Shown piece after piece: positions 12,871 to 47,437 of a stretch of DNA of 64,000 nucleotides. The notes below the pieces were generated by a model. That model saw only the letters and a list, made by a program, of their open reading frames with translations, made no database searches and was not told the DNA's origin. The DNA comes from Boletus sp. NGJ (lineage: Eukaryota; Basidiomycota; Agaricomycetes; Boletales; Boletaceae). The stretch is taken from NCBI GenBank assembly GCA_019096195.1, contig JAGTXK010000138.1, positions 1-64,000 on the forward strand, read 5' to 3'. The translations under genes were made by a program, and so were the position numbers. How positions within the stretch are numbered: position 1 is the stretch's first letter; each line of letters starts with the position of its first letter.

Positions 12871-12872
12871 GT

Positions 12873-13165
12873 TGTTGGGACTTGGCTCCACCATATATAG
12901 TGCACCCTTGCTCAAGTTCATTGTTCCAGATTTTGAGGACATTGGGGATTCAGAGGTTAAGACTCAACTTGGTCAAATGTCAAGTTGAGCAGAAAATCAG
13001 AGTAGTTGTCAAGACTCAAACAAAAATCAGGAGTAGTGTCAAAGTTGATATTCAAACTGAACTATATAGGAGTTGTACCAAAGGTTTATATATAATTGGA
13101 ATGATAATATTAGTAATGGAGTTCATGATATATAATGAGTAATGAGCTAAGTATCAGAACTCTGG
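12873..13165 (-). mobile_element. LTR fragment of the 27-31 kb Gypsy family
   Basis: It aligns in the same orientation with the LTR starting at 31,006 (both begin tgttgg-acttggct) over roughly 290 bp, including a TATA-like tttatatata segment. Element A inserted exactly at the junction between this LTR and its leader, which lies just left of 4,394. Homology fades after about 13,165. Fossil. Confidence 0.65.
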
Positions 13166-20791: not shown

Positions 20792-20914
20792 CCTATTACT
20801 CCCGATGGGTCAGCCTTTTTAGCCATGGTCCAAAAATGTACCATAAACTATAATAAGGCTGCTTACCTCACCTTTGCCAACACCAGCAATAGATCCCACC
20901 CCAAATATGAAGGT
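20792..20914 (+). repeat. Left terminal inverted repeat (123 bp)
   Basis: It starts cctattactccc and ends aatatgaaggt, and matches the inverse of 39,266-39,388 with about seven mismatches and no gaps. It begins 90 bp after the NPT1 stop codon. Confidence 0.92.
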
Positions 20915-21179
20915 TCTGCATGTTGTTGCAGTGCTCAGATCAGATGAGAAGAGAGTGGATATGTGGTGAACTAGTTACATGAGCAGGAAAGTCTATGCAA
21001 CAATTGTAGCAAAGCTAGCCATGTTGTGAGCAGTCAGGTGAAACCCATAGGGTTTCCAGCCCAAGGCAAGACCCTGATCTGTGAGTGGGCCATGGTGAGC
21101 TGTGATCCCGATTTCTAGGAGTCCTTGGTGACACATGCAGTGAAGTGAAAGGCCCACTGACTAGGAGCTGGAAGGGTTA

Positions 21180-22330
21180 CTCACTGTTAGTGGTTAGTGT
21201 ACTGGTGGCATAGCTACTTGATTGAATTTGTTGAGGAGTTGTTGGTTGGCTTGCAAAAAGGGCACCAGTATTAGTGTGTGGTGTCATAGATAGATAAATG
21301 GTAAAGGAGTCACCTGCCCATCTCCCCATTACTTTTACCACGTCAAATGGTACACCCTTGAGTAAATAGAACAGGGTTCTGCCTATGCATAGATTGTGCC
21401 ATTGGAGATTCACGAGACCACATTGTTTGGCAATGGTTGTAATGTGGGTTGTGAACTGGGTTTTAGAAAGGGGGTGCAAACTGTACTTTTGGTGTGTCCA
21501 AGCAAAAAGATGCACATTGCTGGATCCAGGGTTAATGTATAGGTGATTCTATAGTGCAGCTTCTGGGTCTGTTGTGCAACTGGATTGCAGGGCACATTGT
21601 GTTGTTTCACCTTTTTCGAGTTCACATTTGGTGGCTAGCAAGGCAAATTGTAGTACTGGGAGATTGTTGGGATCTTGTAGGAGCATGACGTCTCTGTGTG
21701 TAATGTGTTCTCTTTATGGTTTTGACTGTCAATTTGCCTAGTCTAGCTACGGAGTAGAATACAGTTACCATGCATGCAAAGATGGTGGCATCGCATGGAT
21801 CATTTAGGTCGAGCTGGGCTCATATGATTTTCAAGTTTTCTACTGTCATAGGTGGGTGCTTGGCTTTCTTGGAGTCAGGTGGGGCAAGTCTTGAGGCCCC
21901 TTGTAGCATGTGGTGAAGTTCATCTGAGTCTATTGACCATGGATGGCCGTGCAACAGATGCCAGGCTCGTACTTCTGCTGAGTAGTTGGCTATTGCTGTA
22001 CCTAAGTATGTGCTAGCACAGCTAGAGAGGAAGGAAAGGAGTAAATTATGTGAGACTGGGCACCATTTGGTTTCCAAGAGAGCCCATGTGGTGACATTCA
22101 GCCATAGCATACAGTAAGCCTGCTTGCAAAATGCCCGACATATACGGCTAATCCTACAGTGGGCCTGTGATATATGAGATCCATGAGCCACGGTTGGGCC
22201 CAGCTGAGATGGACATATGTATGTAGGATATGGAAGAGCATGGAAAGGGTAACTAAATGAAGTGTCGATATAAATGACAGGGCCTCAAGCAGGATGAGTG
22301 TAGCCAACATCAAGGGATACAAGTGGTATT
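21180..22330 (-). pseudogene. Tyrosine recombinase-like gene, decayed
   Basis: Minus strand. The C-terminal catalytic part (about 21,620-21,180) reads MHLFAWTHQKYSLHPLSKT, then LVNLQWHNLCIGRTLFYLL and GVPFDVVKVMGRWAGDSF, ending in a Tyr (TIYLS) at the expected nucleophile position. This is the pattern of fungal tyrosine recombinases, where the H-x-x-R box usually reads HGIRIG. Here the Arg position is Cys, so the active site looks lost. Upstream (about 22,190-21,820) lies a helical segment (AWHLLHGHPWSIDSDE) like the N-terminal SAM-like domain. Frames shift between the parts, so it is a pseudogene. It lies 265 bp inside the left terminal inverted repeat, which suggests it is an original part of the transposon rather than a later insertion. 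Confidence 0.75.
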
Positions 22331-23560
22331 GAACGGGGTGGGCATTACTGAGTGCTGATGAATATGAAGGGACTGCATGGGGTAGGCATTAGGTACCTCG
22401 ATTCATATGAGGGGACTGGACAGGGTGGGTGTGATGGAATGCTGTGGCATATGAGGGCCCTGCACAGGGTAGGAATCACTCACCTCGATGGATATGAAGG
22501 AGGTGAGTAGTGTGAATGTGAGTAACTGCCGATGCATATGAGTACACTGAGAAGGATGGGTATCATGTACCTCGATATAAATGTGGGAACTGGACAGGGT
22601 GGGTGTGATCTACTGCCAATGCATATGAGGGCACCAGACAGGGTAGGCATGGTCTAACTCAATGTATATGGGGGGATCAAGAAGTGTGAGTGTGACTGAC
22701 TGCTGATGCATACGAGGGCACCAAGCAGGGTGGGTATCCCTTACCTCGATATCTACAGGGGGACCAGGAAGTGTGAGTGTGACCGAGTGCTGATGCATAC
22801 AAGGCACTGGAGAGGGTAGGCATGGTCTCACTCGATGTATATGGGGGACCAGGAAGTGGGAGTGGGATCAACTGCCGATGCATACAAATACACTGAGCAG
22901 GGGGGGTAACCCTTGCCTCAATGTATATGGAGGGACCATGCAGGATGGGTATCCCTTATCTCAATGTATACAGGGGGACTGAGCAGGGTGAGTATGATCA
23001 ACTGCTGATGCATACGGGTACACCGAGTGGGGTGGGTATCCCTTACCTTGATGTAGATGGGGAGACCAAGCAGGGTGAGTGTGACCGACTACCAATGCAT
23101 ACAAGTATACCAAGCAGGGTGGGTATTCCTTGCCTCAATGTATACAGAGGGACCATGCAGGGTGGGTGTGACCAACTGCTGATGCATACGAGTACACCGA
23201 GCAGGGTTGATATCACTTCCTTCGATGTATTCAAGGGACTGTGCAGGGAGGGTGGGACTGACTGCTGAAATATATGATGGGACCAAACAGGGTGAGTGTG
23301 ATTGAATGCTGATGCATATACAGGGACCAGACTGGGTGGTGGTTACCAAATGCCCAAGCATGGGAGGGCGCTGGAGAGGGTAGGCAACACTTGCCTTGAT
23401 GTATATGAGGGAACCATGCTGGGCAGCTGTGGCTATGTGGGAATGCATGGGATGGGGCTGGACAGGGTGAATGTCACTAGCCTTTGTGATGCACCTTGCA
23501 TGCGAAGGGGCTGAGTGGGGTATGTGATCCTAAGTGTGATGTATATGTCTCTGGCCCAGA
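22325..23560. repeat. 87-bp minisatellite of two ~43-bp half units
   Basis: About 14 degenerate copies. The word (c/t)gatgcata recurs at about 22,704, 22,791, 22,876, 23,006 (1.5 units on), 23,094 and 23,180, mostly 86-88 bp apart. Each unit carries two gcagggtgggt-like words that alternate with a ttacctcgatgtata or a gaccgactgctgatg context. One frame stays open over several units and would encode 29-residue repeats, but this seems to follow from 87 being a multiple of three. The array sits between the divergent recombinase and dioxygenase relics. Confidence 0.85.
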
Positions 23561-23599
23561 TGAAGTTGGATCGGGCTATTCCCATCGGCCGAAATTAGG

Positions 23600-24920
23600 T
23601 AAGATGTGAAACATGTGTTTCCATGGGAACATGGAAACCTACAGTATATCTACAGGGAATCATGAATTCACCAACTTTCTTGCATCTTCTTTTGTCTACT
23701 CCATGAACTCCCCTGAAATCCCTGATGAGTGGGCCATATCCTACACTGATCAATTGGCCACTTATATGGTGTCCAGATTTCAGGAAGCCTTGCAGACCAC
23801 CAATGACACTATGCAGAAAAGTGTACCCCACCCACAAATTCCAATGCAGACAGTTTGTGAGGCAGACAGGATGATCGGTATAATTGCAAGGGCATACCAA
23901 AACAAGGATATGCCTTTCCCAATTTGATAATTTTCCACTAATGCCCTCCTAGTGACAATTGACAATATCGACATCATTCGGCTCGGTGAATGGATGAAAC
24001 GAAGGGGAAATGTAATGCAGCTATTGGATGCTGATGTTCAGAGTTATGGACAGCTCACCAAGCCTGCTGTCATCACCGATTGTTCCAGCTATGTCTTACT
24101 TTGGTATTTACCTGGCGCAATGAGTGAGCCTAATCAAGTGAATCTGTGAGTCAGAAAGTGACTCTTTCTTTTCACTTATGGATCAAACCAGCAATATATT
24201 TGGGAACAGCTGCCACTTTTGTCTAGACCACTGTCCTATAGCTTGACAGGGAGCTCTCCTCAGGCATGGCAAACCTCCCTGGCAAACTTTCACCCCAGGG
24301 CTGAGCTGTGGGGGGCAATCAACCTATCTCCTGCTTGGTTTCAGTAGAATAGAAATGTTGGTATTTTTTGATTTGCCCTCCTTCACTGATCAGACCTTGG
24401 CCAATAGGGGGTGAGCAGGCACCTAAGGTCTTGGCACTACTAAAGGGTACCTGGGGTGAACAGGATACCTGGCAGTGGTTGCTCTCCATACAAGAACATT
24501 CAGCCCTCTTAGCAGCATCAGTTGCTATCCTACATCCCAAAATGTACGAGAAGGGTCAGGAGGTGATGGTTAGGTTCGGCGACTGGGCAGCCATGCAGGA
24601 GAACCCTGATTTGGGGGAGGTTTTCCAATTGTGGTCATCTATCTATAGTGTTGTGTCTGTCATGGCAAACTGAGCAAGTCCATTTCACACTGACACAAAC
24701 AGTAGGCCTCAGTGGTTGGACATTCTCATTTCAGTCAGCAGCTACACTGGGTTGGATTTCATAATCCCAACCATCATGCATTGGCTTCAATATAAACCAG
24801 GAATAGTGATCGCACTCTTAGAGCAAATGCTAGAGCATGGAGTTGGTCAGATAGAGGGGGAGCAGGCAGTGCTCACTTACTATATGTATGCAGAATAATG
24901 TCCATGAATACATGGATGTT
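23600..24920 (+). pseudogene. TET/JBP-family 2-oxoglutarate/Fe(II) dioxygenase, decayed
   Basis: Family members oxidise 5-methylcytosine or thymine in DNA. Coding blocks in order: 23,613-23,927 (EWAISYTDQLATYMVSRF), 23,952-24,149 (VITDCSSYVLLWYLPGAMS), 24,368-24,673 (LWSSIYSVVSVMA) and 24,680-24,898 (FHTDTNSRPQWLDILISVS, YKPGIVIALLEQMLEHGVG, LTYYMYA). HTD fits the HxD iron motif and LEHGV the distal iron His. The position where relatives have the 2-oxoglutarate-binding Arg (G-x-R before the A/TYYM strand) reads Gln. A TGA falls just before the HTD block (position of an Arg in relatives) and the first two blocks are separated by stops or an intron. So it looks inactive. It lies in the transposon, divergent from the recombinase relic. 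The fungal family call rests on remembered motif order, not a search. Confidence 0.7.
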
Positions 24921-25411
24921 CCCCAATGTAATTTTATGCATCATTCAATTTGGGGATGACAATAAAAAGGAATAGTCAGTAAAACATGTACTACAAACTG
25001 TAAATATGTAAAAAGTACTATGGTGTCTTGCTATCACCAGGTAAGCACAAGTCATCAACCTTCTGACACAACTTCTGGAACCAAACCATATCGACCCAAG
25101 ACTCCATCATGGCAGCCTTGGTCTGCACAAGCTCAGTCAGATTTTGCTAAAGCTTGGCCACAATGCTGGCCTCCAGAGAGTCCAGCCAAGCATTGTGAGT
25201 CTTGTCCAAAGGAGAATCATCGGCTGGCCAACAATCCTTGTGACCTATGAGCTGAGGATGTTGATGCCATTGATGTGCATATCTCAAAGAAGTTCTCCAC
25301 CCTCTCAAATGATTCCAAAATGAGAAACTGCAATGCCTGCTCATGATAGGTTGGCATGTCATCCACCCACCATGGATGTTCAAATCTGAAGGTGGGCATA
25401 TGCATGGCAGG
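24921..25411 (-). other. Unassigned minus-strand coding-like segment, left of solo LTR
   Basis: A minus-strand frame (about 25,405-25,217) reads FRFEHPWWVDDMPTYHEQ then FLILESFERVENFFEICTS, protein-like in composition. A second minus-strand frame continues right of the solo LTR at about 26,593-26,354 (LYAPVQTVPPPTPSCAQ). Both may belong to one decayed transposon gene split by the LTR. I do not recognise the family. The 24,921-25,020 stretch between it and the dioxygenase shows nothing. Confidence 0.35.
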
Positions 25412-25416
25412 CTGCC

Positions 25417-26350
25417 TATTACAGTTACCAAAGGGGGTACATCTTTTCCCCTTCCCTCACCTCCAGTAGGACTGTGGGACGATCTATTCTTCAACTCGGA
25501 CCAGGGATTCCCCTGCAACACTGACTCAGGCATTGCCCCATCCGGAACCTCCTTTCTAGGAAGTTACTCATAACTCCCTTTCCAGGAAACTATCTGTTTG
25601 GTCTGGACACTGCCTCCCCTATTTTATTGATATATGCCTTCTTCCTTCTTGATCCGATCATAGACATTACCTCCCTGGCTATGCTCTCTCGTACACAGCC
25701 CAGTGTTCCTATCCCCTCCACTTTGACTTATGCCTTGATCCTCTTATAGTAATCTTTCGTCTGTGACTTACAATTACTATATTCGATACGAAGCCTGCCC
25801 TAGATGGGTGAGGCCTATAAATAGGGATGTGGGCCCTTCATGTAACTCTAACCTAGATCTACACTCCTTCCTGTGTAATCTAACAGCTTCTCCCACTACC
25901 AGTTCCACTTCACCTCAGAAGCCTTGCTCCCGCTCTGAAGGTGATCGCCCTTGTGCTTGTGATCATCCTTCTTATCACTGTGCACTTGTGTGGCCTCATT
26001 GCTGTTACCCGCTTCTAAAGCTTCAGCAACCCCAATGACCAACAGAGGTTGGTCCATGTAAGCCCAGGACTCCGCCACTGGCACTAGGCTATGTAAGCCC
26101 AGAGATCTAGTCTCTGGCCTCCACATCCGGTCTGCCCTTCCTTCTTGAAGGATTATGCCATCATTGGTAAATCCAAGACTCTGCCATTGGTCGTAGAGGA
26201 AATGACAGGACTCTACATAAAGCTAGCAGCGGTCCCTAGTCAGAGGAATCATTGGGCCTCTGAAGGTATTTTCCCCTCAAGTCCTGCTAGTCCTATAATC
26301 AAACAGGGTTGATTATACAGGAATGTGTCACATTGTTACCCAGTGTAACA
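25417..26350 (+). mobile_element. Solo LTR, older copy
   Basis: 934 bp, homologous over its full length to the LTR at 33,896-34,849. It is flanked by ctgcc (25,412-25,416) and ctgtc (26,351-26,355), a 5-bp target duplication with one change. A TATA box (TATAAATA) lies at 25,816. It is more diverged and poorer in CpG than its sister, so it is the older insertion. No internal retrotransposon part is present. Fossil. Confidence 0.85.
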
Positions 26351-26940
26351 CTGTCAGTTTGGCAGGAGCTCCAGGGTTTGCATGATGCCATTGAAGTTGA
26401 TACCCTCAATGCCATGGATGATGTCCAATTGCAGATCCTTGGGGCTGGTGCTGACTTTGATGATTTGGGCACATGATGGGGTCGGCGGGGGTACTGTCTG
26501 CACAGGTGCATATAGTGCTAAGAATAAGCTCAAGATGTTCTGCAATTTATTATGGTCAGAATGCCCGTCGGTCATGTTTAATGAGGGAGGCATACTGACT
26601 CCATGGACAGGTTATCATACCATGTTGCAGGCCATTTCTCTGCTGGAAGTTGGGCAAGATGGGCCACAGCCACTTCAATCTGGCACTTCTGATACATAGC
26701 ATCATGTGGAGTGAAGAGATGGGTGTGTTGTCAGGAAATGTCTCCATGGCAGGAGTGATGAGGGAGGGGGTTTAAGATGAATCTCAGCATGTGGAGGGTG
26801 TGTGGTTACATGTATTCTGTGGCCCACATAGTGCCCAGAATAGGCCAAACAATGGCTAACACTTTTGGACAGGCTGTATACATTTGTCATCACATAACAT
26901 TGGCTTATGAAATGGGGCTACTATCAAATATCTCTATGCA
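26351..26940. other. Decayed transposon interior, no gene called
   Basis: Short frames on both strands without a recognisable domain, apart from the minus-strand piece at 26,593-26,354 mentioned for the left side of the solo LTR. Probably the tail of the KDZ transposase gene or a neighbouring transposon gene. Confidence 0.4.
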
Positions 26941-27440
26941 TCATGAGGCTCAGCAGTTCTCCCAATCTGCCCGACACTGCTCCCAAAGCCAAGCATAGAT
27001 GGCCTGCTAGTGGAAAGAATAGCAGATTTGTCCTCGGTCATTCTTTTGCCAACCATGCACTGCCTACCCTTTCTATTGATGAAATTTGTGGTTAAAGTAA
27101 TTGATGGTCCATTTGAACTTGGCCATCAGTAGCTCTTCCTCCTTTTTCCACTAATACATCATGGCTTTTGCATGCAACCAATGGACTTGGTAAACTGTGG
27201 ATGTCATAATTTTGGCAGGAGTTTTTCACCTGAATGTGGAACTTACATTTAAACATCCAATTGTTCATCTCGGTGTCTCCTGGTGTATCCATTGACCAGA
27301 ACCAGGCTAACTTGTTTTGACAATGGTTGTGGGAGTTAAGCTTAGTAACTGCAGTGCTGACTTTAAGATCTTTATTCTTCAATAACTGATATCTAGACAT
27401 CATGCCATCATCTGCCAAAAGATGCAGCATGGCAGATTTG
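26940..27440 (-). pseudogene. KDZ transposase, C-terminal part, decayed
   Basis: Minus strand. The segments YQLLKNKDLKVSTAV and KLAWFWSMDTPGDTEMNNWM match the conserved C-terminal blocks of Kyakuja-Dileera-Zisupton transposases from mushrooms (usual form: KDLKVSTA, then LPWFWSMDV-GD). A shifted frame downstream gives YQVHWLHAKAM and KWTINYFNHK, matching the following family block (YRVHWLRAKA, then WTVNFF). Frames change and stops occur, so the copy is dead. The N-terminal and catalytic parts should lie to the right but are displaced or lost where the Gypsy element sits. It identifies the host element of the inverted repeats as KDZ-type. Confidence 0.75.
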
Positions 27441-27444
27441 CATC

Positions 27445-30400
27445 TCCGATATATGGCAACAGATGTCCCAGCATCTAGTAAGGGCATTAGGTTTCACACC
27501 AAGTCATCCAGGGCGAAAGCGGATGATCATGTGGAATTGGGAGAGGAACTCTGACCACCAGGCTTGCCGGCAGGTCAGGAGTTTCAAGGTGGCAAAGTAT
27601 TCCAGGTTCTTGTAGTTGGTGACAACATTGATCGGGGTGCTTGAGCCTTCAAGATAGTGCTGCCAAGCCCTGAAAGACTTGTGGATGGCAAGGAGCTCCT
27701 TATCATGAGTGTTGTAGTTGAGCTCCAGAGCGGTGAGCATCCATGAAAAGAAGGCAATGGGCCAGAGCTCTTCATCTGGACAACAGATGGAAAGAATTCC
27801 AGCGATGGTGTAGTTGGAGGCATTGGTTTCTATGATTATTGGAGCATCAGGAGCCCAATGGGTGAGGATGGAAGTGGTAGTGAAGGCTTCCTTTAGCAAA
27901 AGGAAGGATCAGCAGTCATCTCCGAAGACCCAAGGAATACCCTTGCGGGTCAACCGGGTTAGCGGAATGATGATGTTGGAGTAATTGGCAATGAAACGCT
28001 GGTAGAAGTTGGCAAATCTGAGAAAGGATTGGATGTCCTTAACTTTATGAGGTTCTGGCCAGTTCTGCACAGCTTTGACTTTGTCCAAAGACATCGTAAG
28101 GCCAGAGGGTGTGATGATGTAGCTGAGGTACTCTGTAGTGTCGGTGGACCATTCACATTTCTCAGGTTTTGCATATAGGCCATGTTTGCAGAGTCATCAG
28201 AGGACTTCCCAGACATGTTCTCTGTGAGTGGTTTTATCTGCAGAGAAGATCAGGATGTCATCCAGGTAGACGATCACGCTAACATCAAGAAGATCTGCGA
28301 AAACAGTGTTGACAAACCGTTGGAAAGCCGCAGGGGCATTGATGAGGCTGAAAGGCATTACCAGCCACTCATAAAAGCTGTAGTGCATTCGGAAAGACGT
28401 TTTCCATTTGTCTCCATCAGCAATGCAAACCAAATGATAGGCATGCCAGAGATCAATCTTGGTGTAAATCTTTGCATGGCTCAGAGCATCTAGGAGGTCG
28501 GAGATATGGAGGAGTGGGTAGTGGTCTTTCTTTGTGATCTTATTGAGCTCTCAGAAGTCAATGCAAAGGTGGAGTGAACCATCCTTCTCGCAGACGAAGA
28601 GGACTGGGGTGGTATGGGTGGAGGAAGAGGGTCTGATGAAGCCCATGGCTAGGTGCTCATCAAGGAAAGCACAAAGAGAGCTGAGTTCAGAGGTGGAAAG
28701 GGAGTAGGTAGTTCCCAAGAGAGGAGAGGCTCCATCCTCCAGGTTGATCTTTAGATCATGTTCCTGGTGCAGAGCAAGCCGGGAGGCTTTGCTCTTGCTA
28801 AAGACATTGGGGAAATCGTGGTATTCCGGAGGAACACCAGAAAGGTCGACTGGTTCTGGGGGAGTGATGGAAGCAGAGTGGAGATCACTCTCCTGGGGAC
28901 AGAGTTGCAAGCTGAATTGAACAAAGCCTTCAAGGCAACAGGCTAGTGCAAATGCTGGTGCATTAACGAGCGCTATGGGCGGAGCTTTGCAGTCAGAGAA
29001 ACGTGGTGAATCAGGTGGGGTGTCAGCCGGAGGAAGGGATTCTGGAGGCTGTGGAGGGGAGCTTGAGGTTGCTGGCAAATGCTGCTTGGATGAACAGAAC
29101 ATGATACTGCTCATGACCCAATCAATCAATGGATTGTGGTGGGTGAGCCAGTTGTGTCCTAGGACAATAGAGCAGGCAGAATCCAGCAGAGTGACATAGA
29201 AAGTCGTTGGGGTGATGTCACTGGTTGCAAAATGGACTGAGAGGTTGATGGCTCGGGTGATCGTGCTATTGGTAGTTCTGTTGAAGAGACAGAGTTGGAG
29301 CAGAGGGATAGGGTAGATTGAAAGTTCATTTTTATTTACGAAAGAAGTATCTATGAAACAATCGGAGGAGCCTGAATCTACAAGCACAGAGAAGGGCAGA
29401 ATTGAGTAGAAGACTAAGGAGATAGAGGGCATGAGGGATTTGAGGTTGGAAAGAGCAGACATATTGAGGCAAATCTCCTTAGCTGCACATGTGGGTTCAA
29501 CACAACCTCCAGTCTGTGTGGAGTCATGGAGGTTGCAGGTTATTTTTTTGCCTCTGAGGTGGAGACCTCTGGTTTGGTTTCCGGAGTTGTGGTCATGGCG
29601 CAACCCTTGGATGTGCTGGAGGTCGACTTCAGACAGTCCTTTGCCATGTGACCAGCTTGGCCACAGAACATGCAGAGCTTGTTGTCGAACCTGCACTTTC
29701 TCTCATCCACGGTGAGCTTGCCATCTTTCCCTAATTTGTATGACAAGTCCAGCTTTGGATGGGCGGAGGTGGTAGCTCCTTTGCCTTTGAACTCCTTGGA
29801 GTTCTTGGTGCTACTGGAGGGGTGCAAAGAGGATGATGTGGTGGGGTGGATGGTTTTGGAGCGGAGAATGGGGTCGACACTTTAGTCTGCCTGCTGACTT
29901 CCAACTTATGCTCCCAATAGCACGTGTCGATAGCATGTGTGAGGCTTCGGAGTTCGGAGAGTGTCAGGGGTTTCCCAACCTGTGATATCTCATCCTTGAT
30001 GTGGTCTAGCAGACCATTGTAGAAGTGGTGTCAGAGGGCACCTTCTCTGTAACCATGGACTTGCAAAGCGATCTGGTTGAACTCGACCACATACTTGTTG
30101 ATGTGTTGAGTATCCTTCATCGACAAGTGGTCGAGCTGGTGCTCTGCATCTTTAATGGGGTCATGCGGACTGAAGTTGATCTGGAGTTCTAGAATGAACT
30201 CTTTGAAGTCATCCATCCAGAGCAAACAGAAAGTGGGATCTTCCATCTGGAGGAGGTCCAGTTCAAACCACTCCAGAGCCATGCCCTTTAGATATGACTG
30301 CACAAAGGTGACTTTGGTGCGGTCCATCCTGAAAGCCTTCAGGCAGTCTTAGAAGTTGAGTTCGCACTGAACCAGGAAGACCTGGAGTTTGCAGGGCTCA

Positions 30401-31560
30401 GTCCCATCAAACTGGTCCAGTTCCTAGACCTTAGTACATGAAGTGTGGTCAGAGGGACAACATATAGAGCGAGCAAGGCCTTTGATGGCATTGGCAAGCA
30501 GTGCGAGAGTATCTTGCAGGACATGCTCACTGTTGGAGTCAGAGGGAATGTTGTCATTGGAGAAGTCAGAATCATCATCTGACAGGTCATCTCTGGGGAA
30601 GTCCAGGATGTTGTCATTTAGAAAGAGGGCAGCCTGCACTCTTTGATTCGAGTGCCGGCTTGAGAGCCAGGGGGTGGTGGAGTTATCATTGGTAGGTAGC
30701 TTGATGATGTGTGCTCCTGTAGTATACTCCAGAAGAGATCGCAACTGTGAGGCGGAGGTGGGGGTTCATTGAGCGGAGAAGCTTTGGAACTGGTCGATGA
30801 GTTCTGGGCCTCACCAACTGCTACCAAATGCACTCAACAGGTTGTAACATGGGGATGCAGAGGGGTTTATGCCAATGGCACAAGTCTGGGATCTAGTGGT
30901 GCATGTAGCCATAATGTAAAAGACTCATTACAAGTGGGAGTTCAAATATACTGTTAAGAACGGACAACTCCAATGCAACTCTGAAGGACTGGAGTTACTT
31001 GAGGGTGTTGGAACTTGGCTTCACCTTATGTGGTGTGCCCTTGCTTGAGTCCAATATCCCAGATTTCAAGAATGTAGTAAGTTCAGAGGTTTAGACTCGA
31101 TGCGGTCAAATGTCAAGTCAAGCAGAGGATCAGAGTGAGTCGTCAAGACTCAGACGGAGGACGGGAGTGGTGTTCAGAGTTGATATTCGAACTAACTTTC
31201 ACAAGAGTAGTAGCAAAGGTTTATATACAATCAGAAACAAGATTACTAACAGAGTTCGTAAGGTGTAATGAGTAAGTAGTAGCTGAGTAATTAGGAATGG
31301 AGATGGGACCTCGCCGGAGTGGTGCTTTAAGCGAGACAGACACTGGATCAGAGACAGCTATGAAGCGGGACTAAGACAGATGAGTAGGACATAGCTTTAT
31401 GTATGAATGAGGAAGTAGGAATACTATGTGGGGTGAGTGACAAGTCTGAGGGTATGAGAGTGTACTCCAAGGGGGAACACACCGGAGTTATGGACGGAGG
31501 TCTGGAGTTGAACTTGTCGAGTTGCACGGAATATGACAGATCCAAGAACTCATCGCATTC
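27445..31560 (-). mobile_element. Partial Gypsy LTR retrotransposon (element B), broken
   Basis: Minus-strand fossil inserted in the KDZ element. An LTR lies at its right (5') end, its inner border at 31,006 (tgttggaacttgg); the outer border, about 31,560, is uncertain. Then a leader, gag (about 30,840-29,990), a CCHC zinc knuckle (about 29,650), aspartic protease (DSGSSD motif, about 29,375), reverse transcriptase (about 28,800-27,950) and RNase H (about 27,900-27,500). No integrase or second LTR is recognised, so it is a partial copy. It has only a modest number of breaks, perhaps six to ten, and long frames remain, so it is younger than element A. Related LTR pieces lie at 11,400 and 12,873. 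Confidence 0.8.
31006..31560 (-). repeat. LTR of Gypsy element B
   Basis: The inner border is at 31,006, and it aligns with the pieces at 11,400-11,937 (opposite orientation) and 12,873-13,165 (same orientation). Minus-strand TATA-like sequence (tatataaacc) occurs near 31,225. Outer border approximate. Confidence 0.65.
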
Positions 31561-31739
31561 ATCATCAGTCTCATAATCAGAGTCTGGGCTTGTGTATGGT
31601 ATAGGTTCATCATAGTGAATGTCCATTCCTTGGTCCTCAAACATCTGATCCACAACATCTCAATCCTTATGAGACAATGCTTGAATGTTTGCATTAATAT
31701 ACTGGTATTGATGGTAGACTAAAAATACTTACCTTGAAA

Positions 31740-32383
31740 CTCCATAATATGTTGATCATTGATGACATGCAGGCGATCTGCTTGCCATCCTGCGTGTAGC
31801 ATCTGTTTGTACTGAACACTGCCTCTGAATCCATGAATAGTTACCAACTTGGAAAGTCCTTGATACCTTTTTGAGATGCGGTGAAGCATGTTAGACAGCA
31901 GACAAACAACAACATGGCAGACATAAAGCAAGGGAAAAACAGCATAGAACAGGCAGGAAGTGTCGAAGCGATAGGTAAGATAGCTGGGAACATCCCCAAC
32001 AGCAAGCACAGTGTCAAGACAGTAGTAGTCAATGCCAATGACAATAGAGGATGAAAGCAAGAGCAAAAGTGGCATGAGGCAGCATTAAGAATGCCAAGCC
32101 TGAGGTAGGGAAAAACAGCATAGAACAAAGAGGAGGTGTCAAAGCAATAGGCAAGGTAGCTGGAAACATCCCCAATAGTGAGCATGGTGTTGAGATGGCA
32201 GCAGACAACATTGATGACAGAGAATGAAAGTAAGAAGGAAAAAGGTAGCACAAGGCAGCATTGCAAATGCTGTAGAGTGAGCAAATGATGTCAAAAAGAG
32301 AGTGGGGGGGCAGGGACACTGCCAACAGCAAGCACAGTGTTGAGATGGCAGCAGATGATATTGACAATAGAGGACAAAAGTGA
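31740..32383. repeat. Subterminal tandem repeats of the KDZ element, left of Copia
   Basis: Degenerate units of about 155-177 bp. The word agggaaaaacagcatagaac occurs near 31,930 and 32,107, and caaggcagcattg near 32,256. A minus-strand block at about 31,880-31,740 (LVTIHGFRGSVQYKQM) ending at a good GT donor looks protein-coding, but no family is recognised. The array resumes on the far side of the Copia element at 38,948. Confidence 0.7.
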
Positions 32384-32388
32384 GAAGT

Positions 32389-32914
32389 GACAGAATCTAA
32401 AAAAGGACAGGAATGCCCAAGACTCAGCCACTGCCTAAGAGGGCAGAAATGTCTGGATTATTCACCTAGAAAAGGGCAGGAATGCCCAAGACTACAGTAC
32501 ATTAGCTACAGGTAAATGATAAGTAAAAAGAGACTCACTTCAACCGCTGCCTAAGAGGGCGGAAACAACTAAGGTGTGTGTCAGTGAGTGAAGACTATAT
32601 ATACTATGGGTGAAGGTATACTCATATTATGTTATGTGTAACGTTGTGTGAACGGGTCCAAAAGAAGCATGTAATATATGTAAGTATCAGCTAAGAAATA
32701 ATGAAAGTCTAACCATAATAAAAGCTCATTCCGAGTTCAGAATGAGTGTGGGAAAGTTCTAGAAGCAGTTCCGGAACTGCTTCGGGATGATAATCTCGGA
32801 ACCTACGGAAGGGCATGGGAAAATGTTGGAAGCACCTTCAGAACCAGTAGTTCCGGAATGTGGTTCTGGGATGACACTTCCGGGTTTGGAACTTGATCGT
32901 GGATGAATATTGTC
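32389..32914 (-). repeat. 3' LTR of the Copia element
   Basis: 526 bp, TGACAGAATCTA to GAATATTGTCA on the plus strand. It contains a short internal duplication (gcaggaatgcccaagact occurs twice, near 32,408 and 32,477) that the other LTR lacks. Confidence 0.88.
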
Positions 32915-33895
32915 ACTCCCACTCAAGTATAACCATAGTCCCATAGCTTTAATGAACTTCCAGTGTTGATCTCTTACAAGTGGTTTTGTAAGTATATCTG
33001 CCACCATGTCTCCAGTTGGAACATAGCGAACAATTGCTTCTTCCTTTCCGATGAGGTCATCTCTGATGAAATGGTACTTCTGTTGGATGTGCTTGGTTCG
33101 TGCTCAGAACTGTGGATCACAGGATAGGATTATAGCCACTTGATTGTCACAGAATATCTCAGTTGGACCCTTTTGTGTATGTCCAATTTCATCAAAGAAG
33201 GTCCGAAGCCATGCAAGATGCTGTCCAGTGTTACTAAGTCCAATGTATTCCAACTCAGTAGTGGAGAGTGCAATCATGCTTTGTTGTTTACTGGACCAGG
33301 AGATAGCCCCATGATTGCTCATGAAAAGAAAACCAGAAGTGGATCGGGAGTTGTCAGGATTCTGAGACCACCCAGCGTCGGTGTATCCATGGAAGTCCAA
33401 GTTCATTGAGATTTCAGTTCCATCAAACCTGAGTTCCATGTCCTTTGTGGCTTGAATATATCTGAGTGCTCACTTTGCTGCTTCCTAATGAACCAGTTTG
33501 GGTTTTGCACTAAACTGACTCAGTGTCCCAACTGTACATGCAATATCTGGACGTGTTCTGAGCATGAGATACATCAAGGACCCAATGATGGTGAGGTAAG
33601 AGACTTGATGTCCTTCAATGACCATTTCTGGAATGGTATGGTTGTCCTCTGGATCAGTTGCAGAGAGGTGGGAATTGTGTGCCATTGGAGTCCATACAGG
33701 CTTACAGTTTGACATTCCGGTATGGTCCAGGACTGTCCAGGAATACTGTGATTGGGATAGAGAAATGGTTCAAAGCTCATGATTGCACTTGATTTCAATT
33801 CCCAAGATGTACTTGGCTTCTCCAAGCTTCCGCATCTTGAAACTGGAAGAAAGTTCCTTTTTGACAGAATCCATGAACTTCCAGGAGCTGGCAGC

Positions 33896-34849
33896 TGTTA
33901 CGGTTACCGAAGGGGGTACATCTTTTCCCCTTCCCTCTCCCCCCGTAGGCCTGTGGGACGACCTCTTCTTCGACTCTGACCAGGGATTCCCCCGTAACCC
34001 CAACTCAGGCATCGCCCCATTCGGACCTACCTTTCTAGGAAGTTACCTGTAACTCCCTTTTTAGGAACCTACCCGTTTGGTATGGACATCGCCTTCTATT
34101 TCACTGATATATGCTTTCCTCCGCTTTGACCCGATCATAGACATTGCCTCCACGGCTGTGTTCTCTTATACACAGCCCAGTATTCCTACCTTCCCATTCC
34201 ATCCTATGCCTTGATCCATTTATAGTAATCTCTTGTCTGCGACTAGATATTACTATACTTGTCACGAAGCCTGCCCTAGAGGGGCAAGGCCTATAAATAG
34301 GGACGCGGGCCCTTCATGTAACTCTAACCTAGATCTACACATCTTCCCGTGTAATCTAACAAGCCCGCTCCTCCTGCTTAAAGGTTCCACTTCACCTCAG
34401 AAGCCTTCCCTTATGCTCTGGAGGTGATTGTCCTCGTGCTAGCGATCATCCTTCTTATCGCTTCGCACTTGTGCGCCGTCGCTGCCGTACCCAGCCTCTA
34501 GCGCTTCGGCAGCTCCAACGACCAACAGGTGTTGGTCGTCGTTGGTCAGGACTCCGCCACTGACCCAGTAAGACCGGGACTCCGCCACTGGCAATCCAGC
34601 AAGACCGGGACTCCGCCACCGGCACAGTAGACCGGGAAACCAAGACACCGGCACCACAAGACCGAGACTTCGCCATCGGCCGTAGAGGGATAACAAAGCG
34701 CCCTTACGTAAAGCTAGCAGTGGTCCCCAGTCTGAGGGTATTTGGGCCTCAGAGGGTTAAGTAATCTCTTCCCTAAGCCTGCTAGTCCGGTAATCCAACA
34801 GGTGTTGGGATTATACGGGAACGTGTCACCATTGTTACCCGGCGTAACA
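33896..34849 (+). mobile_element. Solo LTR, younger copy, inside the Copia element
   Basis: 954 bp, TGTTACGG at the left and GGCGTAACA at the right, with a perfect target duplication gcagc at 33,891-33,895 and 34,850-34,854. TATA box TATAAATA at 34,292. It keeps many CpG sites that the sister at 25,417 has lost. It lies in the reverse transcriptase part of Copia, so it is the youngest layer of a three-deep nest. The parent family is not otherwise present in the window. Confidence 0.93.
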
Positions 34850-37800
34850 GCAGCTAGGAGTAGGTCATTGACATAGACCACCAGGAAGCAGACCTGTTTG
34901 TCCTTTTGGTAGACATAGAGGCATGTCTCTGCATCCAAACAAGTGAAGCCAAGTTCTCCAAGCTTTCGATCTAGTGTTTTGTTCCAAGTTCGTCCAGCCT
35001 GTTTGAGCCCATACAGGGAATGTTGGAGCTTCCAGCAATATCTGGGTTGGATAGGAACACCATCTGGAGATAGCATGTATAAATCTTCCTCAAGTTCTCC
35101 ATTCAGGTATGCTGTGGAGACATTCATCTGATCCAACTCTAGGTTGTGTTTTGCAGCCAGGGCAATCAGAGTACAGACTGAATCAAGATTTGCTACTGGG
35201 GCAAAAACCTCCTGGTAATCAACTCCCTCCTTTTGGGTGAATCCCTGTGCAACTATCTGGACCTTGTATCATTCCACTTTTCCACTTTGGTCTTGTTTGA
35301 TGTGGAAGACAGGTTTGGAAGTGATAGGGGTGACCCCCTCTGGAATGAGAACAGTTTCATAAATGTGATTGGAATTGAGGCTTTGAAGCTCTTCTTCCAC
35401 TGCCGATTTCCAGAGCTCTGTATGTACTCCAGAGTAAGCCTCCTTGAGTGTTCTAGAAAGGGGTTCATTTGAGTTTGAGTTTGCAGAACCAGCAAATATA
35501 AAGTCCTCCATGTTTTCTCTGGATGCTGAAAATGCTCCTGGGATATTGGGTTCATCTTCCACATGTTCTGGTGATTCCAGACATTCCAGTGATGGTTCCA
35601 GTGGTTCTGAGTGTTCTGCTTGTTTCTGTTGTCGATGGGCTTGTCTTGTAGCCTCTTCATCCAAAGTACGCTGATATTCTCTGTTCTTGTTTGCTGGTTA
35701 TTGTGGTCAATTACTTTTATGTACATCAGCTGCTTGTTGAGCAGGAGGATGAGCTGGAACAGGTGCAGGAATAGGAGGGGCTGGAGCAGCTGGGGGAACT
35801 AGAACAGCTGGAAGGACCAGAACAGCCAGAACAGCTGGAATAGCTGGAATAGCTGGAGGAGCTGGGAGATGCAGTGTATCCAGATGAAGTTGTTCAAATT
35901 GATCTGCAAGCTCTGCTATGGCAGGACTTGCTGGTTGTTCAGAAATATCTGCTCGAACTGCATCTTCTTCCACTGGCCTGGAATTAGGTGGACAATGGTC
36001 ATCATCATCTCCACTGTTATCCTCTGGTTGACAAAGATGCTCTGGAATTAGGCCCTCCCACTGTCCCTCAACAGTGGGACCATTCCATGGAGCTAACTTG
36101 GTTCTGGAGATGGTTCCGGTTTCATCAAAAATAACATGTTGGCTGGAGATGATGGTTTGATGTTCTATGTCCAGAAGCTTATAGGCTTATTGTCCATATG
36201 TGTATCCAATCATAATGCATTTCTTTCCATGTGATTGGAATTTTTCTCCTCATTGTTCCTTTGGCATGTAGGCATATGCTGGACATCCAAAGGGCCAGAA
36301 GAAGGAGGGATCAACTTGTCAATTGAAGAAGACTTGATAGGGTACCTTTCCATCAAGTCCGGAAGTTGGGCTGCATGCAGCAACATAAGCAGTGGTGGCC
36401 ATTGCATCAGCCCAGAAAGACTTTGGAAGTTTGGATTCTTCCAGCATGGTGTTTGCAAGAGTACATAGGATTTGGTTCATCCATTCCACTAATTCATTTT
36501 GTTCCAGAGTATATGGAGCTGAGGTCTCATGAAGTGTTCCATCAGTTCAGAACTGACTTCAGAATGCCTTGTTGATGTACTCGGTTCCTCCATCACTTCT
36601 GACAAACTTGACATAGGATTCTGAGAAGTCCTCTTATCCTATCTCAGTGCGAAGGAGTGTTTGGACATCTGTTTTCCACCGGTTGTAGATTCCAAGTGCT
36701 TCATTTTTGTGTTTCATGAAGTAGACCCAAGGGAAATAAGTAAAGTTATCTATGATAACAATTCAAAATCTGTAGCCTTCCCGGGACCTTGGAGTTATTA
36801 GGCCTCCAACATCTGTGTGGATCATTTCAAGTGGGTGAATGGTGCAAGGTCCATCTTGGAGTTCAAAAGGCAGTTTCTTCATCTTTCCAAGGACACATGC
36901 TTCACAAAATGTCAGTGAGCCGCTAAGTGTGTCTATCCCTTGGAGTTGTCCAGATTTCACCATCTGTTGAATACGGTGATCAGAGATATGGCCCATGCGT
37001 CAGTGTAGAAGATTTATGTCCACTATGGCATGTGCTGCTTCCTTCTGATCATTCAGATTAATCCTTGCATGGTATAGTCCATTTTTTTGTGTGGTGACAA
37101 GTATGGTGTTCTAGTGCTTCCAAACATAGCACATGTTGGAACTGGCTGGAAAGGTAGTGGAAAGGCCAGTGGAAGCAAGTCAGTTCACAGAAATGAGGGA
37201 GATTCGGAACTTGGAAATCAGGAGAACATTAGATAGGATTATCTCATAGGTGGTTCTAGACACTTGTGAGATGAGTGGTACTGTTCCAATTCCTATGGCC
37301 ATAGTGTTGGAATCATCTCCAAGTGTTACAGAACGAGGAGGGTATAGTGGTCGGTATGTTTGAAATCAAGAGCGGTAAGGGACAATGTGTGAAGATGCTC
37401 CAGAATCGATGATTAGTGTGTTGCTCCCACTGCTTTTTGGTTCAGATGACAAATAGGCATGAACACGTTGCATTGTGGAGCGAAATACATGTTCTCTAGC
37501 TATGTTCGCCATATCTGAAGGATCCAGGGTTTTCTCCACTACATTCGCCTTATCCTTTCCTTTCTCTGACTTTCTAGACCCTCCTTTTCTCAGCTCAGAG
37601 ACCCACTTTTTGTAGGTGTTGCAGTCGGACGAGTTATGTGTCAAGGAAAGGTGGTGCTCACACCAGGAAGAGGTGTTTGAGGGGCAAGTAGATGGTTTGG
37701 AATGACCAGAAGCTTTCATAGCTGACTTGGAATGACCAGAAGGGTATAGTCGTGCATCTTCTGTGGTGATCCAGATTTCAATGGCGTTGAAGGTGAGTTT

Positions 37801-38463
37801 GCTATCTTCCACCATGTTGATGACAGAAGATTTGAACATTTTCCATTTCAGAGTTTTTGGAAGGGAGTTTAGGAGGATGAATGAGAGGACTTTGTCATCC
37901 ACTGAGAACTTCATTCCAGCGAGACGAGCTTTCACTGTTCAGAGTGTGGAAATGTGTTCGGCAATGGCAGAGGTCCCATTCCATGTACTGCTGAAGAGTT
38001 GTTGGAAAAGGTAAAAGGCAGAGGAGATGTTTGGGCTTTCATGGAGTTTCATGAGAGCATCAAAGAGTTCTTTGGTGCTGGAGCAGGCACAAGTCTTCAT
38101 CAGGAGGGCATTGGAGATGCGTTGCTAAATGATGCCATGAGCCTTCTCATCATGTTGCTGCCATTCACAAACATTGGAAGCAGTAGTGATGCTTAATGAG
38201 CCAACAATGGGCTTTATGTCTGTTCCAGCAATAACACCAAAAACTTTTTCAGCGCGAAATTTTGCCGAGATGTGAACCTTCCAGATTTCGTAATTGTTTG
38301 GTCCAGTAAGGGTTTCCTCTGGATGAACGGTGTCTGAGGGAGACATGGTGAAAGGTGTGGAAGTGAGTTCGTGATGAACTAAGGTGCACTGAGGGATGTG
38401 TGAGGTGGAGTTGAGTCATCACTGAGTGTTGCTGTTTAGCTTGTGCCAACAGGGCTCATAACC

Positions 38464-38947
38464 TGACAGAATCTAGAAAAGAGCAGGAATGCCCAAGACT
38501 ACAGTACATTAGCTACAGGTAAATGATAAGTAAAAAGAGACTCACTTCAGCTGCTGCCTAAGAGGGTGGAAACGACTGAGGTGTGTGTCAGTGAGTGAAA
38601 ACTATATATACTATTGGTGAAGGTATACTCATATTATGTTATGTGTAACGTTGTGTGAACAGGTCTGAAAGAAGCATGTAATATATGTAAGTATCAGCTA
38701 AGAAATAATGAAAGTCTAACCGTAATAAAAGCTCATTCCGAGTTCAGAATGAGCATGGGAAAGTTCTAGAAGCAGTTCTGGAACTGCTTCAGGATGATAA
38801 TCTTGGAACCTATGGAAGGGTGTGGGAAAATGTTGGAAGCACCTTCGGAACCAATAGTTCCGGGATGTGGTTCTGGGATGGCACTTCCAAGTTCAGAAGT
38901 GACAGAACTGGAATGGTTCAGAACTTGATCATGGATAAATATTGTCA
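38464..38947 (-). repeat. 5' LTR of the Copia element
   Basis: 484 bp, TGACAGAATCTA to AAATATTGTCA on the plus strand, paired with 32,389-32,914. It is poorer in CpG than its partner. Confidence 0.88.
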
Positions 38948-39265
38948 AGAAGGAAAAAGGTGGCACAAGGCAGCATTGCGAACACCATAGAGTGAGCAAA
39001 TGATGTTGAAAATAGAATGGGGGGCCAGGGATGCCACCAACAGTGAGCACAATGCCAGGGCAGTGTTGGGTGATGATGACAATGATGAGGGAGTGGAGGA
39101 AAGGGCATGAGAAGGTAGTGGTGGGCTGTGGTGGCAATATGAGCCACAGCAGGAGGCACCAGAAGAGTGCAAATATGATAGCCAACTAGCTGTAATGGTC
39201 CCGACTACCATGCCAAACCATGCCAAGCTGCATCCCCACCTATTAGCAATACCTCAGTACCAAGT
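38948..39265. repeat. Subterminal repeats of the KDZ element, right of Copia
   Basis: Continues the array seen at 31,740-32,383: aaggcagcattgcgaac and agagtgagcaaatgatgtt repeat words found near 32,256 and 32,275. The Copia target duplication marks the exact break between the two halves. The last ~150 bp before the inverted repeat hold nothing recognisable. Confidence 0.7.
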
Positions 39266-39388
39266 ACCTTCATATTTGGGGCTGGATTTATTGCTGGTGT
39301 TGGCAAAGGTGAGGTAAGCAGCCTTATTATAGTTTACAGTACATTTTTGGACCATGGCTAAAAAGGCTGACTCATTGGGAGTAATAGG
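39266..39388 (-). repeat. Right terminal inverted repeat (123 bp)
   Basis: It starts accttcatattt and ends gggagtaatagg, the inverse of 20,792-20,914 with about seven mismatches. Confidence 0.92.
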
Positions 39389-44726: not shown

Positions 44727-46294
44727 ATGGCAGAATCTCCTTCTGGTCCCCAACGCTCGCGGCCCGCGAGTGTGACAGTCGGGAAGGCCGTGAAAGAAAA
44801 GCGGAAACGTTCACGTGTCACACCAGAACAACTTGTACATCTGGAACGTTTCTTTGCCGTGGACCGCAGCCCTACTGCCCCCCGCAGAAAGGAGATCAGC
44901 GACATGCTTGGAATGCAGGAACGTCAGACACAAATTTGGTTCCAGAACCGGTTAGTACCCACTTTTTCTGCAATGCTATACCTAACCTTTTTGCAGACGG
45001 GCCAAAGCTAAACTACAAGATGGCAATAAGGGCCGAGGTAGCAGTACAGAAACGCCACCGGATGCGCCACCAGAGTTAGTCACTGGGTATGAAGCAGAGT
45101 TACACAACCTTCTACACGAAGACGAGCGTGAGTGATTAATACTGATCGTAAATATCTGGTGACGATTGGGATTTATTGCCAGCCGTTACCATTATTCCTT
45201 GTACCGACCTTTCTGTTGGCACTTGGCGTCGAGTCGCGACCACCCTCAGAAAGCATGACCTTCTGGCGTATCTATGTGATACCAAACGCTGTCTCACCTG
45301 GTTTATCTATTCCTCCGGATATGGGTTTAAAATGGAAATCCCTTTCGATATCATCGTTGATACCGAATTCACAAATGCTGCTCCAGGATCAGGTCTCGCC
45401 TCTTTCATTCTCTCTCGACCACCAACGTTTTACCTGGAATCGTTTTCGCCCCCCAGTCCTGGTCGAGGTACCGAACCAATTCGCCATTGGAAAAAGTGTG
45501 CAGACTGGACCGAAGACCAGCAAGCTACTAAGGTCTTGAGACACAATCTCGTAGGATCTGCTGTCCAACTTGCTCATGTACTTCGACACCTAAACGCCCA
45601 TACATCTGGATCAGATATTCGGCTTCTTTCGCCAAGCTACCACTCCCAAGAACCGTCTACAGCTGTCTTAGAAATACAGCCACCGCCACTGGCCGCCTTT
45701 GATGGGACTGGATATCGCTATCACCCACAGGATAACGTTGATCTTCGTCAACCAGACCACTCAACCCTCGCCCATAAACGATCTTTCCCGCCCGTTTCTG
45801 GTCGACAGCTCATTCTACACGATGAGTCTGTACACCTTCCCATTGCACGGCCCCCCTCAGGCTCCGAACCTGAACCTTCCATGTATCCCGAATATCCTCG
45901 ACACCCCGCTATTGAAGTCAGTCAATCAATTTCGTATTCGAACTATCCAGAAACCGCTCTCCCGCACCATATCTCCCATTCATTGCTCTCTGCTGATTGT
46001 GGTTCTTCCCGATCTTTCTCTCCTCGCAGTTCACACCAGCGACCGTATTCTGCTGGCTCAGTTCAATCGCTTCCCTACGAAGATGATAGTAGGATTCTCT
46101 CGTTCCCTGATAGTTTTCAACCACCTGCGAGTGCTACGCCCACCCCATTTGGGACGCCATCCCCACCACTGTTGATCACTCCGTTCTACCCAGCTGGATC
46201 AGCACCTAACACGTGCATAGTAAGAACTTACGATTCAGCAATACCTGTCGTTTCGGGCATGCCTGGCATGTCCAACTCGGACACCAACTCCTAA
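44727..46294 (+). CDS. Homeodomain transcription factor
   Basis: About 470 residues over three exons. The homeodomain (about residues 25-85) starts KRKRSRVTPEQLVHLERFF and ends in recognition helix QTQIWFQNRRAKAKL, with the invariant W, F, N and R; the first intron splits the codon of the second Arg of NRR. A conserved region then follows (CTDLSVGTWRR, then CLTWFIYSSGYGFKMEIPFD, then NAAPGSGLASFILS), seen in fungal homeodomain regulators of the Phx1/Hom type. The C-terminal half is Ser/Pro-rich and looks disordered. It is expected to act in the nucleus; mushroom relatives influence fruiting, but that cannot be read from the sequence. Convergent with TIM13. Confidence 0.88.
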
Positions 46295-46656
46295 TACCTA
46301 ACTACATTAGTGATTCCTTATCCCACAGCATGCACATCTGAACACTAAACGCTGCGATTTCCATAGTACATATTCGCAGCTTCTTCCGTTTTCCGCGCAC
46401 CATTCGTTGCAACTCAACTCGTTGTAATCGGGCATATCAACTCACATCGCCAGCTTGCATACATACCTTTTATAGCTCTCTAGTTGTACCCACATCTCAC
46501 TAAACTTTCGAATTAGTTCAACAATAAACACTGGATTATTGCCACTACGATGTTGACACAGAATGTTCGACAAATGCTGTATCTTCTCTAGATGTGTGAA
46601 GCAAAGAAAGGTAATAATATGAACCAAAACTTGCAAAGTGTGTAGGTTTCCTAAGG
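46295..46656. other. Intergenic (convergent 3' regions)
   Basis: Lies between the stop codons of the homeodomain gene and TIM13. No gene, RNA or repeat is supported. Confidence 0.6.
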
Positions 46657-47181: not shown

Positions 47182-47437
47182 GCTCCAAATGTTTAACCGT
47201 GACCGCGGTTGATAATAGATTCGAGAGTGGAAGGAGTGGACAACGTCCAGGAATTATGTTAGCTTCCGCTTGCTGAACTTTACTTCCCTTTTTAGAAACT
47301 CAATCACATTGGAGTGAGGACCCGGACTCAATGGATCTGTTACCACTTCCGAGTCAGGCTGGCTGAGCCTGTAAGGGACAAACATCCAATACTCCCATCA
47401 TCCCAGGGGCCTTGCTAGCGACTTCGTGCTGTAGAAT

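What the first reader, a model, noticed from the sequence alone, without database searches (positions are those of the whole stretch)
20792..39388. An 18.6-kb inverted-repeat transposon that carries both a KDZ transposase and a DNA-base dioxygenase relic
The two ends share a 123-bp inverted repeat with about seven mismatches (seen directly). Inside are the C-terminal blocks of a KDZ transposase and a TET/JBP-like dioxygenase. Linkage of TET/JBP genes to KDZ transposons is established for Agaricomycetes, so this copy is a natural test object: an element that may have edited 5-methylcytosine to escape silencing. After removing three later insertions the core is only about 7 kb, which may be a compact form.
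Basis: partly seen in the sequence, partly recalled or inferred. Interest (0 to 1): 0.85.

Follow-up and report, generated by a model that had tools for sequence, protein, structure and literature searches.

The report
Nested, decayed transposons in a mushroom
What looked like one 18.6-kb transposon is a pile of different dead mobile elements: part of a mushroom transposon that carries a DNA-demethylase relic sits inside another element, and the outer inverted repeats are not that transposon's own ends.

Summary
The inverted repeat is real: 126 nt, 94%. So is the TET/JBP relic, over Pfam's cut-off. Of KDZ only a tail downstream of the KDZ domain remains; PF18758 matches 88 places in the genome, none in the window.

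But it is not one KDZ transposon. The TET-bearing KDZ family of this genome has its own ends: in five paired copies, 7-bp target duplications (7, 7, 6, 6 and 4 of 7 bases alike) and long inverted repeats, 230-438 nt measured, 76-95%. One such end lies in the window at 22080, 1.3 kb inside the 126-bp arm; its partner is gone. It sits in a broken tyrosine-recombinase gene. LTR elements came later, and a deletion is inferred. The 126-bp repeat has one other relic in the genome, away from any KDZ or TET hit.

The family combines 7-bp duplications (Kyakuja) with inverted repeats, which Kojima 2025 says his Laccaria Kyakuja lack: perhaps a new variant.

Side result: TET-bearing copies decay at CpG as much as TET-less repeats, 59% against 61% of differences.

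The parts
20792..20917 (+). left arm of the 126-bp inverted repeat; probably the terminus of an outer element of unknown kind
   Evidence: the genome search lists only the two arms and one 77% relic at C22
39263..39388 (-). right arm of the same inverted repeat
21200..22074 (-). broken tyrosine-recombinase gene, residues 66-358 of a 359-aa open frame at C103; two frameshifts, three stops; Arg of the GHSLRIGG motif is Cys
   Evidence: tblastn 48% and 51% aa identity, E 2e-33; several relatives of the C103 protein are named Tyr recombinase domain proteins by UniRef; Pfam gives no match to the fragment
22080..22320 (+). end and start of the inverted repeat of a TET-bearing KDZ transposon (terminus GAGCCCATGTGGTGACATTCA); only one in the window
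   Evidence: same terminus as the KDZ-side ends of five delimited copies; no second copy in the 64-kb window
22080..25416 (+). TET-side part of the KDZ transposon; includes an 87-bp tandem repeat at about 22290-23420
   Evidence: 71-77% DNA identity over the TET part to L045-L048; tandem copies
24464..24880 (+). TET/JBP dioxygenase relic; HTD motif kept, one TGA, then frameshift
   Evidence: PF12851 35.4 bits, cut-off 34.9; aligned with 19 other relics
25417..26350 (.). solo-LTR-like insert (TATTAC..GTAACA), duplication CTGCC/CTGTC; a related copy at 33896-34849 inside Copia with GCAGC/GCAGC
   Evidence: the uninterrupted site is seen in L046
26351..27460 (-). tail of the KDZ gene, downstream of the KDZ domain, cut off at 27460
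   Evidence: 72-78% DNA identity to four copies; 65% aa over 85 residues to a 430-aa open frame of L047; no PF18758 match in the window
27461..30951 (-). Gypsy-type retrotransposon fragment (protease, RT, RNase H; no integrase match)
   Evidence: RVP_2, RVT_1, RT_RNaseH
30952..31538 (.). LTR (TGTTAAG..ATGACA), possibly the 5' LTR of the Gypsy fragment; flanks TATAC and GATCC do not match, while a solo copy in L045 has GGTGG on both sides
   Evidence: the link to the Gypsy fragment is inferred
31539..32387 (.). right-hand low-copy arm with short tandem repeats, inner part
   Evidence: apart from matches to the adjoining LTR start, only the window itself matches
32388..38947 (-). Copia-type retrotransposon, LTRs 94-95% alike, duplication AGAAG on both sides
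   Evidence: (RVT_2)
38948..39262 (.). right-hand low-copy arm, outer part next to the inverted repeat

Best explanation
A nest of dead transposons between two host genes. Shown: one end of a TET-bearing KDZ transposon lies at 22080, directly beside (within 6 bp of) the homology of a broken tyrosine-recombinase gene of an Ngaro-like element; an LTR insert and a Copia element came later, each with 5-bp duplications. Inferred: a deletion with its joint near 27460 removed the KDZ domain, the transposon's other end, the recombinase element's remaining genes and the integrase side of the Gypsy element, since all of these stop or are missing there. The 126-bp inverted repeat bounds the whole nest and is most likely the terminal repeat of an older element of unidentified kind into which the rest was inserted. 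Intact relatives of the KDZ element, about 16 kb, presumably move by the KDZ transposase acting on their own long inverted repeats with 7-bp duplications, while the TET enzyme oxidises 5-methylcytosine; nothing seen in the window can still do either.
For: A search with one end of the KDZ-TET family gave, besides itself and one flank-only hit, 38 hits (40 of 66 candidates scored): 21 begin at query base 106-109, 14 at 114, 3 further in, none outside (the window's end is not in that list). Hits of the two kinds pair up facing inward at C33, C97, C68, C73 and C3; all five pairs enclose a TET hit, four a KDZ hit. The two ends of a pair are alike over 438 nt (89%), 230 (89%), 340 (95%), 383 (92%) and 385 (76%); the 7 bases outside match 7, 7, 6, 6 and 4 of 7, mispaired at most 4. 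The window holds the KDZ-side form of the terminus letter for letter over 21 bases at 22080 and no second one. Recombinase homology runs to 22074; in relatives RT/RNase-H-like frames precede the recombinase (by eye), and none of these or gag is found in the window at E<0.1. LTR and Copia duplications. The 126-bp arm is at no KDZ or TET locus.
Against: No target duplication is recognisable beside the 126-bp arms (read). In the window the KDZ-side form of the terminus stands on the TET side; this needs an inversion or exchange between the inverted repeats, or a subfamily, and was not explained. Only 5 pairs were delimited, and the C3 pair matches 4 of 7 bases. RT/RNase H frames of the recombinase relatives gave no Pfam match, so 'Ngaro-like' rests on gene order, reading by eye and the literature.
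Confidence: 0.87

Rival explanations
1. One 18.6-kb KDZ transposon whose own terminal repeats are the 126-bp arms.
For: TET and KDZ tail lie between the arms; the family does have inverted repeats and a similar size, about 16 kb.
Against: The family's own, different end is at 22080, inside the arm; a recombinase gene of another element lies between; no 7- or 8-bp duplication at the arms; the arm sequence is at no other KDZ or TET locus.
Confidence: 0.03
2. The 126-bp arms are inverted terminal repeats of the tyrosine-recombinase element itself (DIRS-type), later invaded by the KDZ-TET element and the rest.
For: Recombinase C-terminus lies about 280 bp from the left arm; no target duplication, as expected of recombinase elements (expectation recalled).
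Against: No internal complementary region to the outer arm ends was found; relatives show no such inverted repeats in 8 kb at C79 and 12 kb at C103, though their ends were not delimited; DIRS are recorded in early-branching fungi and Ngaro, with A-B-A-B repeats, in Agaricomycotina (Muszewska 2013, passages).
Confidence: 0.08
3. The inverted repeat is not a transposon end but two stray copies of a short dispersed repeat, or a local inverted duplication, on either side of the nest.
For: Only three copies are listed in the genome, one of them solitary; no target duplication; no transposase gene assigned to it.
Against: With lax scoring the outer edge of the C22 copy falls at that of the left arm (against the right arm the match stops 20 bases short); sequence inside the right arm matches the C22 locus weakly but better than 200 of 200 shuffles.
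Confidence: 0.2

Closest known systems
TET+ Kyakuja transposons of Agaricomycetes (Kojima 2025, PMC12730594; abstract, sections 3.2 and 4.2, figure legends and passages read)
   Same: TET/JBP gene plus KDZ transposase gene; 7-bp target duplications; one end begins CA; Boletales listed there with TET+ Kyakuja only
   Different: relatives here have long inverted terminal repeats and the other end finishes ..GGGCTC, whereas two Laccaria Kyakuja are said to have CA..TG and no TIRs; the window copy is truncated and dead
Zisupton (KDZ with TIRs and 8-bp TSD; passage of Kojima's introduction read)
   Same: KDZ with inverted terminal repeats
   Different: duplications here are 7 bp; lineage of the transposase was not tested
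Ngaro retrotransposons (Muszewska 2013, PMC3783388, passages read)
   Same: tyrosine recombinase preceded, in relatives, by RT/RNase-H-like frames; known in Agaricomycotina
   Different: only the recombinase remains; split direct repeats not seen

Membership tests
TET+ Kyakuja (KDZ) | TET/JBP dioxygenase gene | tested here: met
   PF12851 over cut-off, relic
TET+ Kyakuja (KDZ) | KDZ transposase gene | tested here: inconclusive
   window: only a tail downstream of PF18758; relatives: KDZ hit in 4 of 5 delimited copies
TET+ Kyakuja (KDZ) | 7-bp target duplication | tested here: met
   relatives: 7, 7, 6, 6, 4 of 7 bases in five pairs; not testable in the window, other end gone
TET+ Kyakuja (KDZ) | no TIRs (said of two Laccaria families) | tested here: not met
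   five of five delimited relatives have inverted ends alike over 230-438 nt, so I do not file it as Kyakuja proper
TET+ Kyakuja (KDZ) | 5'-CA..TG-3' termini | tested here: not met
   TET-side end begins CA in four of five delimited copies (TA at C97); KDZ-side end finishes GGGCTC
Zisupton | terminal inverted repeats | tested here: met
   in relatives; the 126-bp arms are not these
Zisupton | 8-bp target duplication | tested here: not met
   7 bp; an eighth base would match at C33 but not at C97 or C68 (read)
Kyakuja or Zisupton | place of the transposase in the KDZ tree | not tested
   no reference sequences at hand
Ngaro | tyrosine recombinase | tested here: met
   names
Ngaro | RT and RNase H upstream | tested here: not met
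   not found in the window; RT/RNase-H-like frames in relatives by eye, no Pfam match
Ngaro | A-B-A-B split direct repeats | tested here: inconclusive
   no long direct repeats around relatives; ends not delimited
DIRS | inverted terminal repeats plus internal complementary region | tested here: not met
   no internal match to the outer arm ends beyond short chance words

The most novel reading that the evidence does not exclude
The genome's TET-bearing KDZ family is a lineage or variant apart from the described Kyakuja: about 16 kb, 7-bp duplications, and long inverted terminal repeats that run into an 87-bp tandem array, which may serve as repeated transposase-binding sites.
Probability: 0.45. 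Interest if true: 0.45.

Novelty: new variant of a known kind. Interest (0 to 1): 0.32.

Why it matters
It corrects a tempting misreading: an inverted repeat around KDZ and TET genes need not be that transposon's end, even where the family has inverted repeats of its own. It delimits, with target duplications, a TET-bearing KDZ family whose ends differ from the published description of Kyakuja. It also offers a test of the idea that transposon TET enzymes shield their carriers: here the TET-bearing family has lost CpG to about the same degree as repeats without TET, so any benefit is not long-run protection of its DNA from CpG mutation.

Tried and rejected
Tried without result: Pfam on the recombinase fragment, on the C103 relative and on its RT/RNase H frames (of two homologues tried one gave Phage_integrase at E 0.09, below cut-off); PDB sequence search (none); Rfam on the window at gathering scores (none); a DIRS internal complementary region; a second haplotype of the left flank (only the window itself). 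The two C79 recombinase copies could not delimit the element, being 100% identical over 7 kb in inverted orientation and so one duplication. Empty sites in related strains: no fungal strain collection is at hand.

Rejected on recheck: my first reading that the KDZ-TET family has no inverted repeats. It rested, but none of the three stretches searched there reaches both ends; the paired hits, followed, show the contrary. The place of the family's end in the window and the verdict on the 126-bp arms stand, on better evidence; I raised the confidence from 0.85 to 0.87 and changed novelty and the most novel reading for that reason. Also rejected: that a boundary between two C133 copies is the KDZ-side end; that the 7-kb core is a compact form; that the LTR at 30952-31538 is a fresh solo LTR.
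Full report
The inverted repeat at 20792-20917 and 39263-39388 is 126 nt long and 94% complementary, 7 mismatches over 123 nt. The TET relic passes Pfam's cut-off (PF12851, 35.4 against 34.9 bits, 24464-24880 +). It keeps the HTD motif (HxD and a downstream H are the conserved residues according to Kojima, passage) but has one TGA and then a frameshift. For KDZ, PF18758 matches 88 places in the genome and none in the window. The stretch 26351-27460 (-) matches at 72-78% DNA identity the part downstream of the KDZ domain in all four fetched copies L045-L048, and 85 residues of it match at 65% a 430-aa open frame of L047 that adjoins the domain. That frame matches no Pfam family.

The genome (32.8 Mb, 141 contigs) is a fungus; named homologues of the C103 recombinase among the 120 listed of 456 include Boletus, Suillus, Paxillus and Pisolithus, so the host is probably a bolete. 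TET and KDZ are linked: 16 of 23 TET hits have a KDZ hit within 10 kb, 15 within 5 kb, all 16 convergent; the window's TET is among the 7 without.

The family has its own ends, and they are not the 126-bp arms. In four copies the sequence outside a shared point differs. A genome search with that end and 107 bases of flank gave 40 scored hits of 66 candidates: itself; one at C119 holding only the flank, bases 1-105; and 38 others, of which 21 begin at base 106-109, 14 at 114, 2 at 129 and 1 at 142; none extends outward. The window's end is not in that list. Hits of the first and second kind face each other at C33 (16.1 kb apart), C97 (16.2), C68 (17.6), C73 (13.7) and C3 (22.6); all five pairs enclose a TET hit, and all but C73 a KDZ hit. 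Reading these ends: TET-side termini begin CACATRATGCAGTCA (TACATG at C97), KDZ-side termini GAGCCCATGTGGT; about 20-30 bases in, the two ends become alike, over 438, 230, 340, 383 and 385 nt at 89, 89, 95, 92 and 76%, in several cases to the end of what was fetched. The 7 bases outside agree in 7, 7, 6, 6 and 4 of 7 positions in the order above; mispaired ends agree in at most 4. So this is a TET-bearing KDZ family with 7-bp duplications and long inverted terminal repeats.

In the window the KDZ-side terminus stands at 22080, identical over 21 bases to the pattern taken from those copies, and it is the only family end in the 64 kb (one other site within five mismatches, at 14414, is a chance-like match). 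It is 1.3 kb inside the left 126-bp arm. That it stands on the TET side here is unexplained; exchange or inversion between the inverted repeats would do it.

Between arm and end lies a broken tyrosine-recombinase gene: residues 66-358 of the 359-aa frame at C103, 48% and 51% identical in the two main pieces, with two frameshifts and three stops; the Arg of the conserved GHSLRIGG is Cys (that this Arg is catalytic is recalled). The homology stops at 22074, so the KDZ element sits in or directly beside this gene. In relatives the recombinase follows frames that look like RT and RNase H (by eye, Pfam gave nothing). Muszewska et al. (PMC3783388, passages) report Ngaro, not DIRS, in Agaricomycotina. 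None of the RT, RNase H or gag frames tried is found in the window at E<0.1.

The arms hit only one other place, C22:2406921-2407016, 77%, with no KDZ hit within about 130 kb and no TET hit on that contig. No target duplication is seen beside them.

Later insertions: a solo-LTR-like piece 25417-26350 (CTGCC/CTGTC; L046 shows the uninterrupted site), a related copy inside Copia (GCAGC/GCAGC), Copia 32388-38947 (AGAAG/AGAAG), and a Gypsy fragment 27461-30951 with protease, RT and RNase H, followed by an LTR at 30952-31538. KDZ homology stops at 27460-27461 in L045, L046, L048 and L049; for L047 at 27460 or, with laxer scoring, 27483, as for L050. The Gypsy fragment begins there without its integrase side. 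One deletion would explain this, the missing KDZ domain and the missing rest of the recombinase element; that is inference.

CpG decay. CpG observed/expected is 0.77 and 0.94 in flanking gene stretches, 0.14 in both KDZ-TET parts, 0.17 in the recombinase stretch, 0.32 in Gypsy, 0.35 in Copia, 0.58 in the LTR at 30952, and 0.07 in window 1-13000. Among TET relics the same Arg codons turn to stop, Gln or Trp again and again. In four KDZ-TET comparisons 536 of 916 differences (59%) are CpG-type transitions; in five comparisons of repeats without TET, 165 of 272 (61%), Fisher p 0.57. Pairs share sequences and are not independent. Five of the 14 comparisons were left out of this sum: four more divergent pairs (two window/L046, the two window copies of the solo-LTR-like piece, window LTR/L045; 21-36% CpG-type) and the arms themselves (3 of 8). 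CpG-biased mutation in an Agaricomycete has been reported for Rhizoctonia solani (PMC4014442, passages); Kojima cites that hypermutation was not detected in Agaricomycotina.

Conclusion: a truncated, dead copy of a TET-bearing KDZ transposon in a nest of other elements, misread as one transposon because the nest is bounded by an inverted repeat. By the tests here I file it under KDZ with TET, not under Kyakuja proper, since two features given for Kyakuja (no TIRs, CA..TG) are not met in its relatives. What the 126-bp repeat belongs to is open; an older unidentified element is most likely.

Noticed in passing
L024-L043, window 23600-27460: TET-bearing KDZ copies show strong CpG-to-TpG/CpA decay, no weaker than repeats without TET in the same genome.
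   Followed up: partly
C33:16955-33059 (L045, L062, L064) and C97 (L048, L061, L065): Two KDZ-TET copies of about 16 kb with exact 7-bp duplications and inverted ends; the middle part of each was not read in full.
   Followed up: partly
window 22290-23420 and L045-L048: An 87-bp tandem repeat sits just inside the TET-side end in the window and the four fetched copies; at C33 the inverted repeat runs into it.
   Followed up: partly
window 1-13000: CpG observed/expected only 0.07, far below the rest of the window; shares repeats with L044 and L045.
   Followed up: no
L055 and L059 (C79:13001-20000 and about 45814-52813): 7,000 bases 100% identical in inverted orientation about 26 kb apart: a very recent inverted duplication or an assembly artefact.
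   Followed up: no
L047 with L063 and L050 with L057 (C133): Two KDZ-TET copies in opposite orientation, 95.9% over 11 kb counting gaps but without one substitution at C or G in a 3-kb part.
   Followed up: no
L044 (C22:2399501-2409500): Two 737-bp direct repeats, 91% alike, hold the LTR of the window's 30952-31538 plus about 144 bases, with the third copy of the 126-bp repeat between them.
   Followed up: partly
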